From positions 1 to 35,590 of the forward strand of contig JAKAQS010000010.1 of assembly GCA_021819585.1 (NCBI GenBank): a stretch of DNA of 35,590 nucleotides, given 5' to 3'. This DNA comes from Acidobacteriota bacterium (GTDB taxonomy: Bacteria; Acidobacteriota; Terriglobia; Terriglobales; Acidobacteriaceae). Below are positions 5,129 to 19,002 of this stretch, piece by piece; the first letter of the stretch is position 1; each line of letters opens with the position of its first letter. The position numbers and the translations under genes were made by a program. The notes under the pieces are model-generated. The model made no database searches, had not been told where the DNA came from, and saw only the letters and a list, made by a program, of their open reading frames with translations.

Positions 5129-6289
5129 CTAGCTACCCGCCACGCCGGACATCTCATCCACGGACTCTGAGGTCGTCACCACCACCTGATCAACCTTCGG
5201 GCCAATCTGCACCAGCGGCCCATGGTTAGCAACAGGCCACTGGTTCAGCAGTCTCTGCGCATCCTCATCCTCATACATGGAGGGAAACATATACTTCTTC
5301 GCCGTCTCCCAGAATCCCTTCAAAGAGCTGAAGTTATAATCCACAGCCGATGCTTCATGGCCGGAGTGAACCATACAATTAGCGCACTGTGGATTACCGC
5401 TCTTGGCTCCGTACTTGGCCCACTCCACGGTCTCCATCAGCTCCTGGAAGCTGTCCGCATAGCCGTCCTGCAAGAGGTAGCAAGGCTTCTGCCAGCCAAA
5501 GATCGAGTAAGTCGGCATACCCCACGGAGTACATTCAAAGTCGCGCTTGCCCATCAGATACTCCGCAAACAGAGGATGCGTATTGAACTGCCAGCTCTTC
5601 TTCCGGTTGGAGAGAATGGCGCGAAACAGCTTGCGCGACCGCGCTTTGCCAAGGAAGTGGTTTTGGTCCGGGGCCTTGTCGTAGGTGTAGCCCGGCGAGA
5701 CCATCATGCTCTCGACTCCGGCGGCCATCAACTCATCAAAATGCGCTCGCACGGAGTTGGGATCGGCTCCATCGAACAGCGTCGTGTTCGTCGTCACCCG
5801 AAATCCAGCCGCTACGGCAGCACGAATTCCTTCCATCGCAATCTCGTGCCCGCCCTCCCGGCACACGGACATGTCATGATGTTCCTTTTGTCCGTCCACA
5901 TGCACCGAAAAGCTCAGGTACTTGGAAGGCTTGAAGAGATGCAGCTTCTCCTTGAGCAGCAGCGCATTGGTGCATAGATAGATATACTTCTTCCGTTCTA
6001 CCAACCCAGCCACAATCTCGGGCATCTGCGCATGAAGCAGCGGTTCTCCGCCCGGGATCGACACCATCGGCGCACCACACTCCTCCACCGCCCGAAAGCA
6101 CTCCTCAGGCGTCAACTGCGCCTTTAGAATATGCGCCGGATACTGAATCTTGCCGCAGCCGGCGCAAGCCAGGTTGCAGCGAAAAAGCGGCTCCAGCATC
6201 AGTACCAGCGGATACCGCTTCCGTCCCGCCAACTTCTGCTTCAGAACATAAGTGGTAACGGTCAACATCTGTGAGATGGGGATACCCAT
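5129..6289 (-). CDS. hpnH: Adenosyl-hopene transferase HpnH (radical SAM)
   Basis: HpnH joins the 5'-deoxyadenosyl group of S-adenosylmethionine to diploptene, giving adenosylhopane, the first C35 hopanoid. The radical SAM cluster motif CxxxCxxC is at C38, C42 and C45 (RCNLACAGC), followed by the GGEP motif (SIPGGEPLL). Conserved C-terminal cysteines appear in CTPWGMPTYSIFGWQKPCY and in NPQCANCMVHSGHE. Length (386 aa) fits the family. The ATG at 6289 has AAGGAG 9 nt upstream. It lies 152 bp after shc and 210 bp before the small conserved gene. I see nothing recognisable in the 210-bp gap. Confidence 0.96.
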   Translation of the reverse strand: MGIPISQMLTVTTYVLKQKLAGRKRYPLVLMLEPLFRCNLACAGCGKIQYPAHILKAQLTPEECFRAVEECGAPMVSIPGGEPLLHAQMPEIVAGLVERKKYIYLCTNALLLKEKLHLFKPSKYLSFSVHVDGQKEHHDMSVCREGGHEIAMEGIRAAVAAGFRVTTNTTLFDGADPNSVRAHFDELMAAGVESMMVSPGYTYDKAPDQNHFLGKARSRKLFRAILSNRKKSWQFNTHPLFAEYLMGKRDFECTPWGMPTYSIFGWQKPCYLLQDGYADSFQELMETVEWAKYGAKSGNPQCANCMVHSGHEASAVDYNFSSLKGFWETAKKYMFPSMYEDEDAQRLLNQWPVANHGPLVQIGPKVDQVVVTTSESVDEMSGVAGS

Positions 6290-6441: not shown

Positions 6442-8478
6442 TCAACCCGATTCGCATTCTACCCGCTCCATCGCCTTGCGGTAGGTCGTCAGCGCCAGCA
6501 GCGGAAAGTACTGCTTATAAAAGTGGTAACCCAAGTAAAACACCTTCGGGAATCCCGTTCCAGTGTAGTAGCTTTCCCCATTGCGTCCCGGCATCAGCTC
6601 ACTCCAGGAACCATCCTTCTGCTGCCGTTCAATCAGCCAACGAACACCCTTGGCCACCGAATCCGAGCGCGTATCGTTGGCTGCCAACAAACCCAGCAGC
6701 GCCCAAGCCGTCTGGCTAGGCGTGGAAGGTCCAACCCCGCGCTGGCTGGGATCGTCATAGGTTCCGGCAGTCTCCCCCCATCCGCCATCGGGATTCTGCA
6801 CCATTCGAATCCACTCGGCTGCCTGCTGCACGGCCGGCTCCAGGTAGCTCACCTCCATCGCCTGCAGGCCACGCAGCACCAGGAAGGTGCCATAGAGATA
6901 GTTCACGCCCCAGCGCCCGAACCACGCTCCATCCGGCTCTTGCTCCTTGAAGATGAACTGAATCGCCTTCTCCACCCGCTTGTCACGGCGCGTGTAACCG
7001 TAACTGGCCAGCATCTCCAGGATGCGGCCGGTAATGTCCACCGTGGGCGGATCGATCATCGCATTGTGATCCGCGAACGGAATCGACTCGAAGATCTTTT
7101 TGGTATTGTCCTTGTCGAAGGACGCCCAGCCACCGCTCTTGCACTGCATGGCGAAGACCCACTGAATCGCCCTTCGCGTCACCTCATGTTGATAACGCTC
7201 GCGAGGATTATCCACGGCCTTTAGCGCCAGCAGCACCTCTCCGGTATCGTCCACATCCGGTTGATGGTCATTGTTGAAGAAGAAACACCAGCAGCTCGGC
7301 TCGGCAACCTTCACGTTGTGTGACCAATCACCCTTGGAACGTATCTCCTTGGAGAGCAGCCAGTCGGCCGCCTTCACCAACCGCGGATCATTCCTGGCAA
7401 GCCCTACCTCACCCAAGGTTGAGAGCACCTGCGCCGTATCCCATACCGGCGAAAAGCAAGGCTGCATCCGGAAGGTGGGAACAGGATAAGCCGGCGTGCC
7501 CTCCGGGCAATCGATTCCCAGGCGCTCAAACTCGTCCAGGGCGCGAATTAACTGTGGATCATCCTTGGAGTAGCCCAGATACACCAAAGCGACAATCGCG
7601 TTCAGCATCGCCGGATAGATGGCGCCAAGGCCATCGGAACGCTCGAAGTGATCCAAAATCCAGTGCTCGGCCTTCTTCAAGGCCACCTTTCGCAATGGCC
7701 GGATATGCACCCGCTCCGACCAGTGCATCAACCGGTCGGTGAACAAAAAGAAGTTGCGCCATGAGAGCAACCGCTTCCGATCAAAACGAAGGTGCAGATT
7801 CGCACCCTCGCGTCCGCCGACAAACAGTTCGTCGATCGTCTGCTCGGAAGCCAGCTTCTTGAACGGCTTCTTGGCGTAGATGATCGACAGCGGCACCAGA
7901 ATCGCCCGCGACCAGGCACTGATCTCGTAGATGTTGAAGTAGAACCACTTCGGGAAAAGAATGATCTCGGGCGGGACCGCCGGTACGGCGTCATAGTCAT
8001 ATTGGCCCATGGCGCAGAGATAGATCTTGGTGAAGGTATTGCACTCCACCACGCCGCCCAGTTCGAGCACTTTCTTGCGCGCCTTCACCATCAGTGGATG
8101 ATCCGCTTTCCAGCCCATCAACTTCAGCGCCAAATAGCACTTCACGCCGTAGTTCACATTGCTGGGCCCACCTGGGTACAAACTCCATCCGCCGTCTTCA
8201 TTCTGGTGGCGCAGAATCTCATTCACCGCGCGTTCCATCCGGCCTCGGTCTCCCGTGCCCAGCAGCGTGTGCATGAAGATGTAGTCGGACTCCAGCATCG
8301 AGTCGGCTTCCAACTCCGCGCACCAGTATCCAAGCTCGTGCTGCCGGCCCAAGAGCCAGTTGGTTGCAGCTTCAATCCCTTCGCTGATCCGCTCGATTGC
8401 GAGGTCCATCCGCCCGAATCGCGGCTGCGCTGTCGTCTGCGGATTGGGTCGTTGTGTACTCATAAACTCATGAGACAA
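6442..8478 (-). CDS. shc: Squalene-hopene cyclase
   Basis: This 678-aa enzyme cyclises squalene to hopene/hopanol, the committed step of hopanoid synthesis, as a monotopic membrane enzyme. The catalytic acid motif DxDD is present as DVDDT (D408, D410, D411). Several QW motifs are visible (for example QNEDGGWSLY near 92-101, EPDGAWFGRWGVNYLYGT, QNPDGGWGET, QQKDGSWSE). No signal peptide is expected or seen. The best start is a TTG at 8478: a strong AAGGAG lies 6 nt upstream. The first in-frame ATG (8463) would put that site 21 nt away. The gene lies between ispH and hpnH on the same strand, so precursor supply, cyclisation and side-chain addition are adjacent. Confidence 0.97.
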   Translation of the reverse strand: MSHEFMSTQRPNPQTTAQPRFGRMDLAIERISEGIEAATNWLLGRQHELGYWCAELEADSMLESDYIFMHTLLGTGDRGRMERAVNEILRHQNEDGGWSLYPGGPSNVNYGVKCYLALKLMGWKADHPLMVKARKKVLELGGVVECNTFTKIYLCAMGQYDYDAVPAVPPEIILFPKWFYFNIYEISAWSRAILVPLSIIYAKKPFKKLASEQTIDELFVGGREGANLHLRFDRKRLLSWRNFFLFTDRLMHWSERVHIRPLRKVALKKAEHWILDHFERSDGLGAIYPAMLNAIVALVYLGYSKDDPQLIRALDEFERLGIDCPEGTPAYPVPTFRMQPCFSPVWDTAQVLSTLGEVGLARNDPRLVKAADWLLSKEIRSKGDWSHNVKVAEPSCWCFFFNNDHQPDVDDTGEVLLALKAVDNPRERYQHEVTRRAIQWVFAMQCKSGGWASFDKDNTKKIFESIPFADHNAMIDPPTVDITGRILEMLASYGYTRRDKRVEKAIQFIFKEQEPDGAWFGRWGVNYLYGTFLVLRGLQAMEVSYLEPAVQQAAEWIRMVQNPDGGWGETAGTYDDPSQRGVGPSTPSQTAWALLGLLAANDTRSDSVAKGVRWLIERQQKDGSWSELMPGRNGESYYTGTGFPKVFYLGYHFYKQYFPLLALTTYRKAMERVECESG

Positions 8479-8632: not shown

Positions 8633-9658
8633 TCAAAGAGACGCGCCGGAGGCGAGCGCGGGCGCCGACGCAATCGCAGAGACGATCTCCTCGGGCAACC
8701 CGAACCTGACGTTCTCCGGCATCACTTCGACCTCTTCCACGGAGCCGTATCCCTTGCTCTGCAGATAGGCAATCACCTCCTGCACCAGAATCTCGGGTGC
8801 TGACGCGCCTGCCGTAATAGCAACGGTCTCCACGCCCTCAAGCCAAACCGGCTGAATATCATCCGCCTTGTCGATCAGATAGGACTGGGTCCCAATCTTC
8901 TGCGAAACTTCCACCAGCCGATTGGAGTTGGAACTGTTCCGTCACCCCACCACCAGCACCAGATCCGCCTCATGGGCCACATTCTTCACCGCCGACTGGC
9001 GATTCTCGGTCGCATAGCAGATGTCCTGGGCATGGGGGCCCACAATCTGGGGAAACCTCTTCTTCAGCGCCTCGATCATGTACCGCGCCTCGTCGAGCGA
9101 AAGTGTCGTCTGGGTCAGGTAGGCGACCTTCTCCGGATCCTCCACCACTAACTCCTCGACTTCCTTCACGGTTGAGACCACCTGGGTTACATCTGGAGCT
9201 TCCCCCTGCGTGCCCTGAATCTCCTCATGATCGCGATGCCCCACCAACACCAGCGAGTACCCCTGCTTGGCAAACTTGACTGCCTCCAGATGCACCTTGG
9301 TAACCAAAGGGCACGTCGCGTCGATCACCTTCAGATGCCGCTGCCGAGCTCCATCCCGAACGGCCGGGCTCACACCATGGGCGGAGTAAATCACCCGCGC
9401 CCCTTCCGGCACCTCATCCAGCTCATTGACGAAGATGGCGCCCTTTTGGGCTAGATCGTTCACCACATAGCTGTTATGTACGATCTCTTTACGCACATAG
9501 ATCGGCGCTCCAAAGGTATCAAGCGCAATCTGGACGATGTCGATCGCGCGCACCACCCCGGCGCAGAAGCCTCGTGGCTTCAGCAACAGGACTCTTTTGA
9601 TGGCAGTTTCGCCTTGGTTCGCACGGACGCTCTCGGCAGGCAGGGTAGGTTGACTCAC
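8633..9658 (-). pseudogene. ispH: 4-hydroxy-3-methylbut-2-enyl diphosphate reductase, interrupted by an in-frame TGA
   Basis: IspH is the last enzyme of the MEP pathway; it makes IPP and DMAPP with a [4Fe-4S] cluster. The three cluster cysteines are present (RGFCAGV, DATCPLV, QDICYATENRQ). The reading starts at GTG 9658, runs 238 codons to ...LVLVVG, meets TGA at 8944-8942, then continues in the same frame through RNSSNSNRLVEVSQ and TAGASAPEILVQ to a normal TGA at 8633. With the TGA read through, the product is about 341 residues, full family length. The TGA takes the place of the first Ser (or Gly) of the G-S-x-N-S-S-N-S substrate-binding motif, so one base change restores the gene. Options are sequence error, recent nonsense mutation, or readthrough. 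I see no obvious SECIS hairpin. Downstream translation from GTG 8914 could not give a working enzyme alone. Confidence 0.85.
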
Positions 9659-17012: not shown

Positions 17013-17756
17013 CTAAATGGGAGCAGCCCCGTTGATCACCGTCACCCCCGGAGGCGGAGTGAAGGTGAAATCGCTCTGCGGCGCCGGCGCATTCTCTCGG
17101 ATGTCCGAGAAGGTGAACGTCGTCTCCGCCCCATCGGCATCTACAATCCGCAGCGCGTGAATCTGCCCCTGCGCGTCCGCTGTAATTTCCATCGACTGTA
17201 CCGTCTTCTCCATTCCGCGAGGTACGCCGGAGAGAGTGTATCCTCCCTGGACAAGCGTCAGCGTAAGTCCCTTCAGCTCCTTGGCTATCTCCGTGTGCCC
17301 CAGCAGGAAGCGAAGGGGCGAGCGAAGATCGTCCAGATCTTTGGCGGGCGTTCGTTCAGCCTCAGCATCGCCCGGCGTGTAACTGATGGCGAATTTTCCG
17401 TTCAGGACAAAGATCTTTCCCGAGGGAGCATCATAGGCCCAGCGCATCTTGCCCGGCCTGCTCAGGGTCAACGTTCCCGTCTCGGAGCGATCAATCCCCA
17501 TGCCGCGATAGCGCTCGGTAAATCGCGCGGTAAGGGAGTGGAGATGGTTATAGTGCGTATCCACCCGATGCGCCAACTGGACTGCCGACAGGACTGGCGC
17601 AGCCCCAAAGGCCGTAGCGACCCCGGCAATCATGGCTGTTACCGTGGCGAATACCGGTAGAAACTTTCTCGATGCCAAAGTCAAAATCCAATCGAAGAGA
17701 TTCCAGAGAAGCGACGAAACGTGGCGCCGTTCACGAGCGAACTCTGCTCTCTCCAT
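17013..17756 (-). CDS. lolA: Outer-membrane lipoprotein carrier protein LolA
   Basis: LolA carries lipoproteins across the periplasm from LolCDE to the outer membrane. The 247-aa product has an unusually long N-terminal region of about 30 residues before a hydrophobic signal segment (FLPVFATVTAMIAGVATAFGAAP, about 33-55). The LolA fold then follows (HYNHLHSLTARFTERY, TGTLTLSRPGKMRWAYDAPSGKIFVLNGK, SPLRFLLG, FTFTPPPGVTVI). The true start could be internal, but no better ATG with a ribosome binding site is obvious. It begins 27 nt after the HugZ-like gene and is probably co-transcribed with it. Confidence 0.88.
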   Translation of the reverse strand: MERAEFARERRHVSSLLWNLFDWILTLASRKFLPVFATVTAMIAGVATAFGAAPVLSAVQLAHRVDTHYNHLHSLTARFTERYRGMGIDRSETGTLTLSRPGKMRWAYDAPSGKIFVLNGKFAISYTPGDAEAERTPAKDLDDLRSPLRFLLGHTEIAKELKGLTLTLVQGGYTLSGVPRGMEKTVQSMEITADAQGQIHALRIVDADGAETTFTFSDIRENAPAPQSDFTFTPPPGVTVINGAAPI

Positions 17757-18924: not shown

Positions 18925-19002
18925 GTCCCCGTCGTCTAGAGGCCCAGGACGACATCACACTCATGGTGTAAACACGCGGTTCGAATCCCGTCGGGGACGC
19001 CA
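18925..19002 (+). tRNA. tRNA-Glu (CTC), with aberrant anticodon loop and T stem
   Basis: The 78-nt sequence, including an encoded CCA, matches bacterial tRNA-Glu. The acceptor stem GTCCCCG / CGGGGAC is perfect, the D arm is GTCT-AGAGGCCCA-GGAC, and the T loop is TTCGAAT with CCCGT as the 3' T-stem strand. Two anomalies stand out. The anticodon stem ACATC / GGTGT encloses 8 nt (ACACTCAT) instead of 7, and the base before the CTC anticodon (18960-18962) is A instead of the universal U33. The 5' T-stem strand is ACGCGG, that is ACGGG with one inserted C. A normal tRNA-Glu is 76 nt with CCA. It is either a degenerate tRNA, a sequence error, or an unusual functional form. Confidence 0.75.

What the first reader, a model, noticed from the sequence alone, without database searches (positions are those of the whole stretch)
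8942..8944. In-frame TGA inside an otherwise intact ispH
The ispH frame is uninterrupted except for one TGA. It falls just before NSSNSNRL, at the first Ser/Gly of the G-S-x-N-S-S-N-S substrate-binding motif. Both flanks are in the same frame and match IspH across the full length, including all three cluster cysteines and TAGASAP. IspH is normally essential for MEP-dependent bacteria, and this gene leads a hopanoid run that needs its product. One substitution (TCA or GGA to TGA) explains it. Options are a sequencing error, a recent null allele covered by a second ispH, or stop readthrough/recoding. TGA ends other genes here normally, so a general code change is unlikely.
Basis: partly seen in the sequence, partly recalled or inferred. 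Interest (0 to 1): 0.7.

Follow-up and report, generated by a model that had tools for sequence, protein, structure and literature searches.

The report
Stray stop codon in ispH gene
A single stop codon breaks an otherwise normal essential isoprenoid gene (ispH) in a draft genome of a soil acidobacterium; it is most likely an error or stray variant in the assembled sequence, or else a very recent mutation, and nothing supports a special way of reading it.

Summary
ispH (8633-9658, minus strand) is open except for TGA at 8942-8944, where 80 of 80 named related loci have a serine codon. It is the only ispH-family match in the genome and the only listed ispH row carrying a stop among 61 close and 396 phylum genomes, this one included (the second table was cut). 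Codons on both sides stay conserved. IspG is intact and no HMG-CoA reductase was found, so the cell should need IspH. Recoding is disfavoured: RF2 is intact, 23 of 50 checked gene ends are TGA, no tRNA-Sec or TCA-anticodon tRNA was identified, and no downstream hairpin stands out. Best reading: an isolated base-call/assembly error or minority-strain allele in a 347-contig draft (0.6); next, a real, very recent null allele (0.28). Reads would decide. A separate oddity on the same contig may be more interesting: a tRNA-Glu-like RNA (18925-19002) with an abnormal anticodon arm, in 15 of 28 genomes of the genus.

The parts
8633..9658 (-). ispH (lytB), 341 codons including the internal stop, plus terminal TGA
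   Evidence: PF02401 over positions 1-267, 321.1 bits, '1 TGA' inside; NCBIfam IspH matches of both halves
8942..8944 (-). in-frame TGA in place of a Ser codon
   Evidence: Ser codon in 80 of 80 named loci
8945..9658 (-). N-terminal 238 codons, holds all three cluster cysteines
   Evidence: match to NF002189 positions 6-231
8633..8941 (-). C-terminal 102 codons with the NSSNS and TAGASAP motifs, plus terminal TGA
   Evidence: match to NF002189 positions 233-322
6442..8478 (-). squalene-hopene cyclase gene, downstream of ispH
   Evidence: PF13243 and PF13249; 677 of 678 residues align to G023 without gap
5129..6289 (-). radical SAM/DUF3463 gene (HpnH-like, name recalled)
   Evidence: PF04055, PF11946
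3315..4376 (-). NAD-dependent epimerase gene (HpnA-like, name recalled)
   Evidence: PF01370

Best explanation
The organism's working ispH is intact, and the TGA belongs to the assembled consensus only: a local base-call/assembly error, or an allele of a minority strain picked up in a fragmented draft (probably a metagenome bin; inferred). Shown: the stop is in the assembled sequence, the gene is single copy in the assembly, it is conserved on both sides of the stop, and the genome has IspG but no HMG-CoA reductase. Inferred: that a cell with this allele alone could not live, and therefore that the base call or the allele does not represent the population.
For: Only ispH-family match in 3.88 Mb. 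IspG intact and no HMG-CoA reductase; lytB is essential in E. coli and Synechocystis (PMC8837944, passages). Of 61 genomes (this one and 60 relatives) 55 have ispH, and the only row with a stop is this one; the same holds for the listed rows of the 371 matching genomes of 396 in the phylum, a table that was cut. No exact match of a TGA-at-this-codon pattern in the genome collection (the pattern demands N-S-S-N-S-N-R-L-like codons, and the window's own genome may be left out there). Ser codon in 80 of 80 named loci, T. roseus counted twice: TCG 61, TCC 10, TCA 6, TCT 3; these overlap with the genomes. Against the closest relative, over 310 codons, 38 silent and 2 replacement codons lie before the stop and 14 and 0 after it. 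Three of four consecutive bases differ there from the closest relative (ATCG to GTGA), the only such cluster in this gene.
Against: No sign of a generally poor sequence. 18 of the 20 window genes I annotated could be aligned to G023 and do so nearly end to end with one gap in all (these frames were chosen because they are open in the window, so the test for stops is). In 617,121 bases of own-genome sequence, 101 reference proteins gave 37,185 aligned residues (redundant) with no frameshift and, apart from this TGA, one TAG on L230, which I take for a wrongly called antisense frame but did not settle. Window-only replacement changes (29 in 3,432 codons, 100 silent) are not in excess over G023 (53 in 3,428, 122 silent), G026 (23 in 2,936, 89 silent) or the more distant G007 (124 in 3,168, 217 silent). 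Clusters of three changes in four bases are not rare overall (28 in 18,420 bases). Outside the 310 counted codons ispH has two window-only replacements in its last nine codons. No reads were seen.
Confidence: 0.6

Rival explanations
1. A real, very recent nonsense mutation in this lineage. The cell survives because a second ispH lies in the unassembled part, or the sampled population carries the broken allele alongside intact ones.
For: Clean neighbourhood and no excess of error-like changes. The assembly is 93.14% complete. A second ispH occurs in the family: Terriglobus roseus gives two loci on one chromosome (L110, L117).
Against: Each of the 25 matching genomes among the 28 of the genus has one match. 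No decay over the 310 codons counted. A second copy hidden in about 7% of the genome is unlikely a priori.
Confidence: 0.28
2. The TGA is read through or recoded, so that full-length IspH is made from this allele.
For: Both halves are conserved in the same frame. TGA followed by C is a leaky stop context (recalled). An unusual tRNA-Glu-like gene lies 9.3 kb away.
Against: An RF2 gene with the SPF motif is intact (motif meaning recalled). 23 of 50 genes whose ends match a reference end in TGA, and ispH itself ends in TGA. No tRNA-Sec and no ARAGORN tRNA with anticodon TCA. No stable hairpin after the TGA (z -0.49). No relative shows the TGA. The odd tRNA-like gene is in 15 genomes; of the 14 others, 13 have an ispH match and none of these has a stop (G020 has no match).
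Confidence: 0.05
3. A split enzyme: the two parts are made separately and assemble.
For: Both parts are conserved. A GTG codon follows 27 bases after the TGA in the same frame.
Against: A second part starting at that GTG would lack S-R-N-S-S-N-S-N-R-L, hence the pocket residues S225 and N227. The relatives' genes show no stop at this place.
Confidence: 0.01

Closest known systems
IspH/LytB (4-hydroxy-3-methylbut-2-enyl diphosphate reductase), PF02401
   Same: Sequence over the full length, three cysteines, NSSNS and TAGASAP motifs
   Different: One internal TGA; the frame as assembled makes only 238 residues
Nonsense lesions and base errors in draft genomes
   Same: One isolated stop in a single-copy, otherwise conserved gene
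   Different: Needs two base changes from the codon of the nearest relatives
UGA recoding (selenocysteine, or genetic codes with UGA as sense codon)
   Same: In-frame UGA with a conserved continuation
   Different: Replaces Ser, no tRNA-Sec found, no hairpin, RF2 intact, TGA ends many genes

Membership tests
IspH/LytB (PF02401) | Full-length similarity to the family model | tested here: met
   321.1 bits, positions 1-267 of 267 when read through the stop
IspH/LytB (PF02401) | Three cluster cysteines and NSSN/TAGASAP motifs in frame | tested here: met
   roles of the motifs partly recalled
IspH/LytB (PF02401) | One uninterrupted reading frame | tested here: not met
   TGA at 8942-8944
IspH/LytB (PF02401) | Reductase activity | not testable with these tools
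   needs an assay or complementation
Selenoprotein | tRNA-Sec in the genome | tested here: not met
   Nine RF01852 matches at E <= 0.001: the only one over cut-off is tRNA-Ser(TGA), seven others are ordinary tRNAs, the ninth is tRNA-Ser(CGA). Genome 93% complete
Selenoprotein | Hairpin just downstream of the UGA | tested here: not met
   z-score -0.49 for 65 nt
Selenoprotein | selA and selB | not tested
   searches spent elsewhere
Genetic code with UGA as a sense codon | UGA not used as terminator, RF2 lost | tested here: not met
   23 of 50 matched gene ends are TGA; RF2-like gene intact
Pseudogene | Relaxed selection or further lesions | tested here: not met
   14 silent and 0 replacement codons after the stop against G023 within 310 codons; two window-only replacements in the last nine codons; a very young pseudogene is not excluded

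The most novel reading that the evidence does not exclude
The UGA in ispH is real and is decoded at a useful rate by a suppressing tRNA, conceivably one not recognised by tRNA finders such as the abnormal tRNA-Glu-like RNA on the same contig, whose six-base loop CACUCA contains UCA. This would be a single-codon suppression of an essential gene in a bacterium that otherwise uses UGA as stop.
Probability: 0.02. Interest if true: 0.85.

Novelty: not a real feature. Interest (0 to 1): 0.15.

Why it matters
If the TGA were real and fixed, an essential enzyme of the MEP pathway would have to be made by readthrough or by a hidden copy. As it stands the case is mainly a caution about single stop codons in draft genomes. 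The abnormal tRNA-Glu-like RNA found on the way matters more: it is conserved and shows compensatory changes in its anticodon arm, yet ARAGORN does not report it.

Tried and rejected
Second ispH in the assembly: none. Mevalonate bypass: no HMG-CoA reductase (no other mevalonate gene was searched). Selenocysteine: no tRNA-Sec. Suppressor tRNA: the places of the 41 RF00005 matches were looked at with ARAGORN. All are ordinary except two: the odd gene in the window, which ARAGORN does not call, and G000:C266:8852-8921, a repeated 3' part of tRNA-Arg(CCG). Recurrence of TGA at this codon in other species: 0 exact matches. Local template for the changed bases: GGGTGACGG occurs once more in the window, at 17039-17047; 8 of 100 shuffles reach two matches. 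A first comparison of all frames with relatives was useless because antisense frames gave many false stops, and its output was cut; it was replaced. Papers: (ispH, premature stop codon, readthrough) listed 12 of 690, none of the 12 with ispH in the text; one search listed one paper, on ciliates. Only listings were seen for these two. One search listed three papers, of which I saw passages of one (PMC8837944).

Rows dropped: only queries with a best hit of at least 65% identity were counted. In one search, 4 of 54 genes were set aside because their end did not match the reference. In one search codons with fewer than two comparison genomes were skipped. In one search only 310 codons from KRVLLL on were counted. 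In one search, 2 of the 20 annotated window genes were left out (not in the held G023 stretches).

Full report
OBSERVATION. The minus strand from 9658 to 8633 encodes IspH in one frame with a single internal stop, TGA at 8942-8944. The Pfam model PF02401 matches over its whole length with '1 TGA' inside, and the two parts match consecutive stretches of an NCBIfam IspH model. By count on the alignment to solved E. coli IspH the stop stands at Ser222. S225, N227 and S269, which a review lists in the diphosphate pocket (PMC8837944, passages), lie after it, so the 238-residue product should be inactive (inference).

RELATIVES. The window belongs to an unnamed 3.88 Mb draft in 347 contigs, 93.14% complete and 0.29% contaminated. 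The five nearest named relatives are metagenome bins, two of them named Granulicella. Of 61 genomes (this one and 60 relatives), 55 have an ispH match and only this genome's carries a stop. In 396 genomes of the phylum, this one included, 371 match; in the rows that the tool listed this is again the only one with a stop, but the table was cut. At the codon in question 80 of 80 named loci have serine: TCG 61, TCC 10, TCA 6, TCT 3 (one genome gives two loci, and some are the same genomes as). A pattern for TGA at this codon gave no hit in the species-genome collection.

SELECTION. Compared with the closest relative G023, 38 silent and 2 replacement codons lie before the stop and 14 silent and 0 replacement codons after it, counted over 310 codons. 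Beyond that stretch the last nine codons hold two window-only replacements. The gene was under selection on both sides of the stop until very recently, or still is.

NEED FOR ISPH. IspG is present and intact, no HMG-CoA reductase is found, and no second ispH exists in the assembly. The gene heads a run with squalene-hopene cyclase, a radical-SAM/DUF3463 protein, a protein without Pfam match and an epimerase on the same strand.

RECODING. Two release-factor genes are intact; their frames carry the PAT motif of RF1 and the SPF motif of RF2 (motif meanings recalled). Of 54 distinct own-genome genes checked, 50 end where the reference protein ends: 23 with TGA, 15 with TAG, 12 with TAA. ARAGORN reports no tRNA with anticodon TCA. 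The RF01852 hit above cut-off is tRNA-Ser(TGA). The 65 bases from the TGA on fold no better than shuffles.

ERROR OR MUTATION. A first all-frames comparison was too noisy to use. With called genes, 101 reference proteins gave 37,185 aligned residues in 49 own-genome sequences. The only interior stops were this TGA and a TAG on L230 that looks like an antisense frame, and there were no frameshifts. Window-only replacement changes are not in excess over the three relatives counted. So the draft is not visibly error-ridden, which weakens but does not remove the error hypothesis: at modest error rates a few false stops per genome are expected (inference), while a true loss of the only ispH should be lethal. 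The change is not a single step from the neighbours' codon: only 2 of 122 TCG codons of G023 are TCA in the window, and three of four consecutive bases differ here. Such clusters do occur elsewhere (28 in 18,420 bases), so this decides nothing.

VERDICT. Isolated error or minority allele, 0.6; real recent null allele, 0.28; readthrough or recoding, 0.05; split enzyme, 0.01. The rest is left open.

A SEPARATE FINDING. The tRNA search for suppressors turned up a gene at 18925-19002 (+) that scores as tRNA (36.3 bits, gathering score 29) but is not called by ARAGORN. The fast Rfam scan of the whole window also missed it, and folding it alone gives a different anticodon hairpin with an ordinary energy (z -1.63). 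It has the body of tRNA-Glu with CCA. Copies of 78 nt and 91-100% identity are in 15 of the 28 genomes of the genus searched. The other 13 show, as best match, an ordinary tRNA-Glu at 78-82% identity. In the family, only these 15 score above 108 bits with a model built from them, and the next best match has 83.3 bits (398 genomes, stricter filters). Twelve of the lower-scoring 78-nt matches were checked and are normal tRNA-Glu. The odd RNA has either an 8-nt anticodon loop or a 6-pair stem with a 6-nt loop CACUCA, and one extra base (C, U or A) in the T stem. In 15 sequences (8 distinct) all 22 proposed pairs are kept. Three pairs of the anticodon stem, the sixth pair among them, change on both sides. 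Shuffles reach this number of pairs in 9 of 500, the covariation score in 1 of 500, and the number of pair types in 125 of 500. Flanking DNA looks alike only among close carriers in the 13 of 15 printed. A normal tRNA-Glu(CTC) of another body is in 25 of 28 genomes, so the odd one is an extra gene in most carriers. Precedents in passages of a review (PMC7609411): an 8-nt anticodon loop in yeast mitochondrial tRNA-Thr and an A51a bulge in selC* tRNA-Cys. Three literature searches (listings only, plus those passages) showed no report of this RNA.

Noticed in passing
window 18925-19002 (+): Conserved tRNA-Glu-like RNA, missed by ARAGORN, with an 8-nt anticodon loop (or 6-pair stem plus loop CACUCA) and a 1-nt T-stem bulge. 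It is in 15 of 28 genomes of the genus and its anticodon stem shows compensatory changes. Possibly a tRNA recruited to a non-decoding role or a reader of an expanded codon; function untested.
   Followed up: partly
L197 (G023:C87:761-836): A second, 83% identical copy of the odd tRNA-like RNA in the closest relative, not called by ARAGORN; looks like a decaying copy.
   Followed up: no
L176 (G004:C43, next to 124621-124698): The 3' part of a further tRNA-Glu-like sequence lies directly upstream of the odd RNA, with a partial match at 124722-124758.
   Followed up: no
L259:8852-8921 (G000:C266): A repeated 3' part of the neighbouring tRNA-Arg(CCG), as a mobile element might leave.
   Followed up: partly
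L110 and L117 (NC_018014.1): Terriglobus roseus DSM 18391 gives two ispH loci on one chromosome.
   Followed up: no
L224-L228: Partial 3' copies of tRNA-Glu(CTC) at separate places in several genomes of the genus, possible attachment sites of integrated elements.
   Followed up: no
L230:789: An in-frame TAG in an alignment to a frame called in G023; probably an antisense frame, not settled.
   Followed up: no
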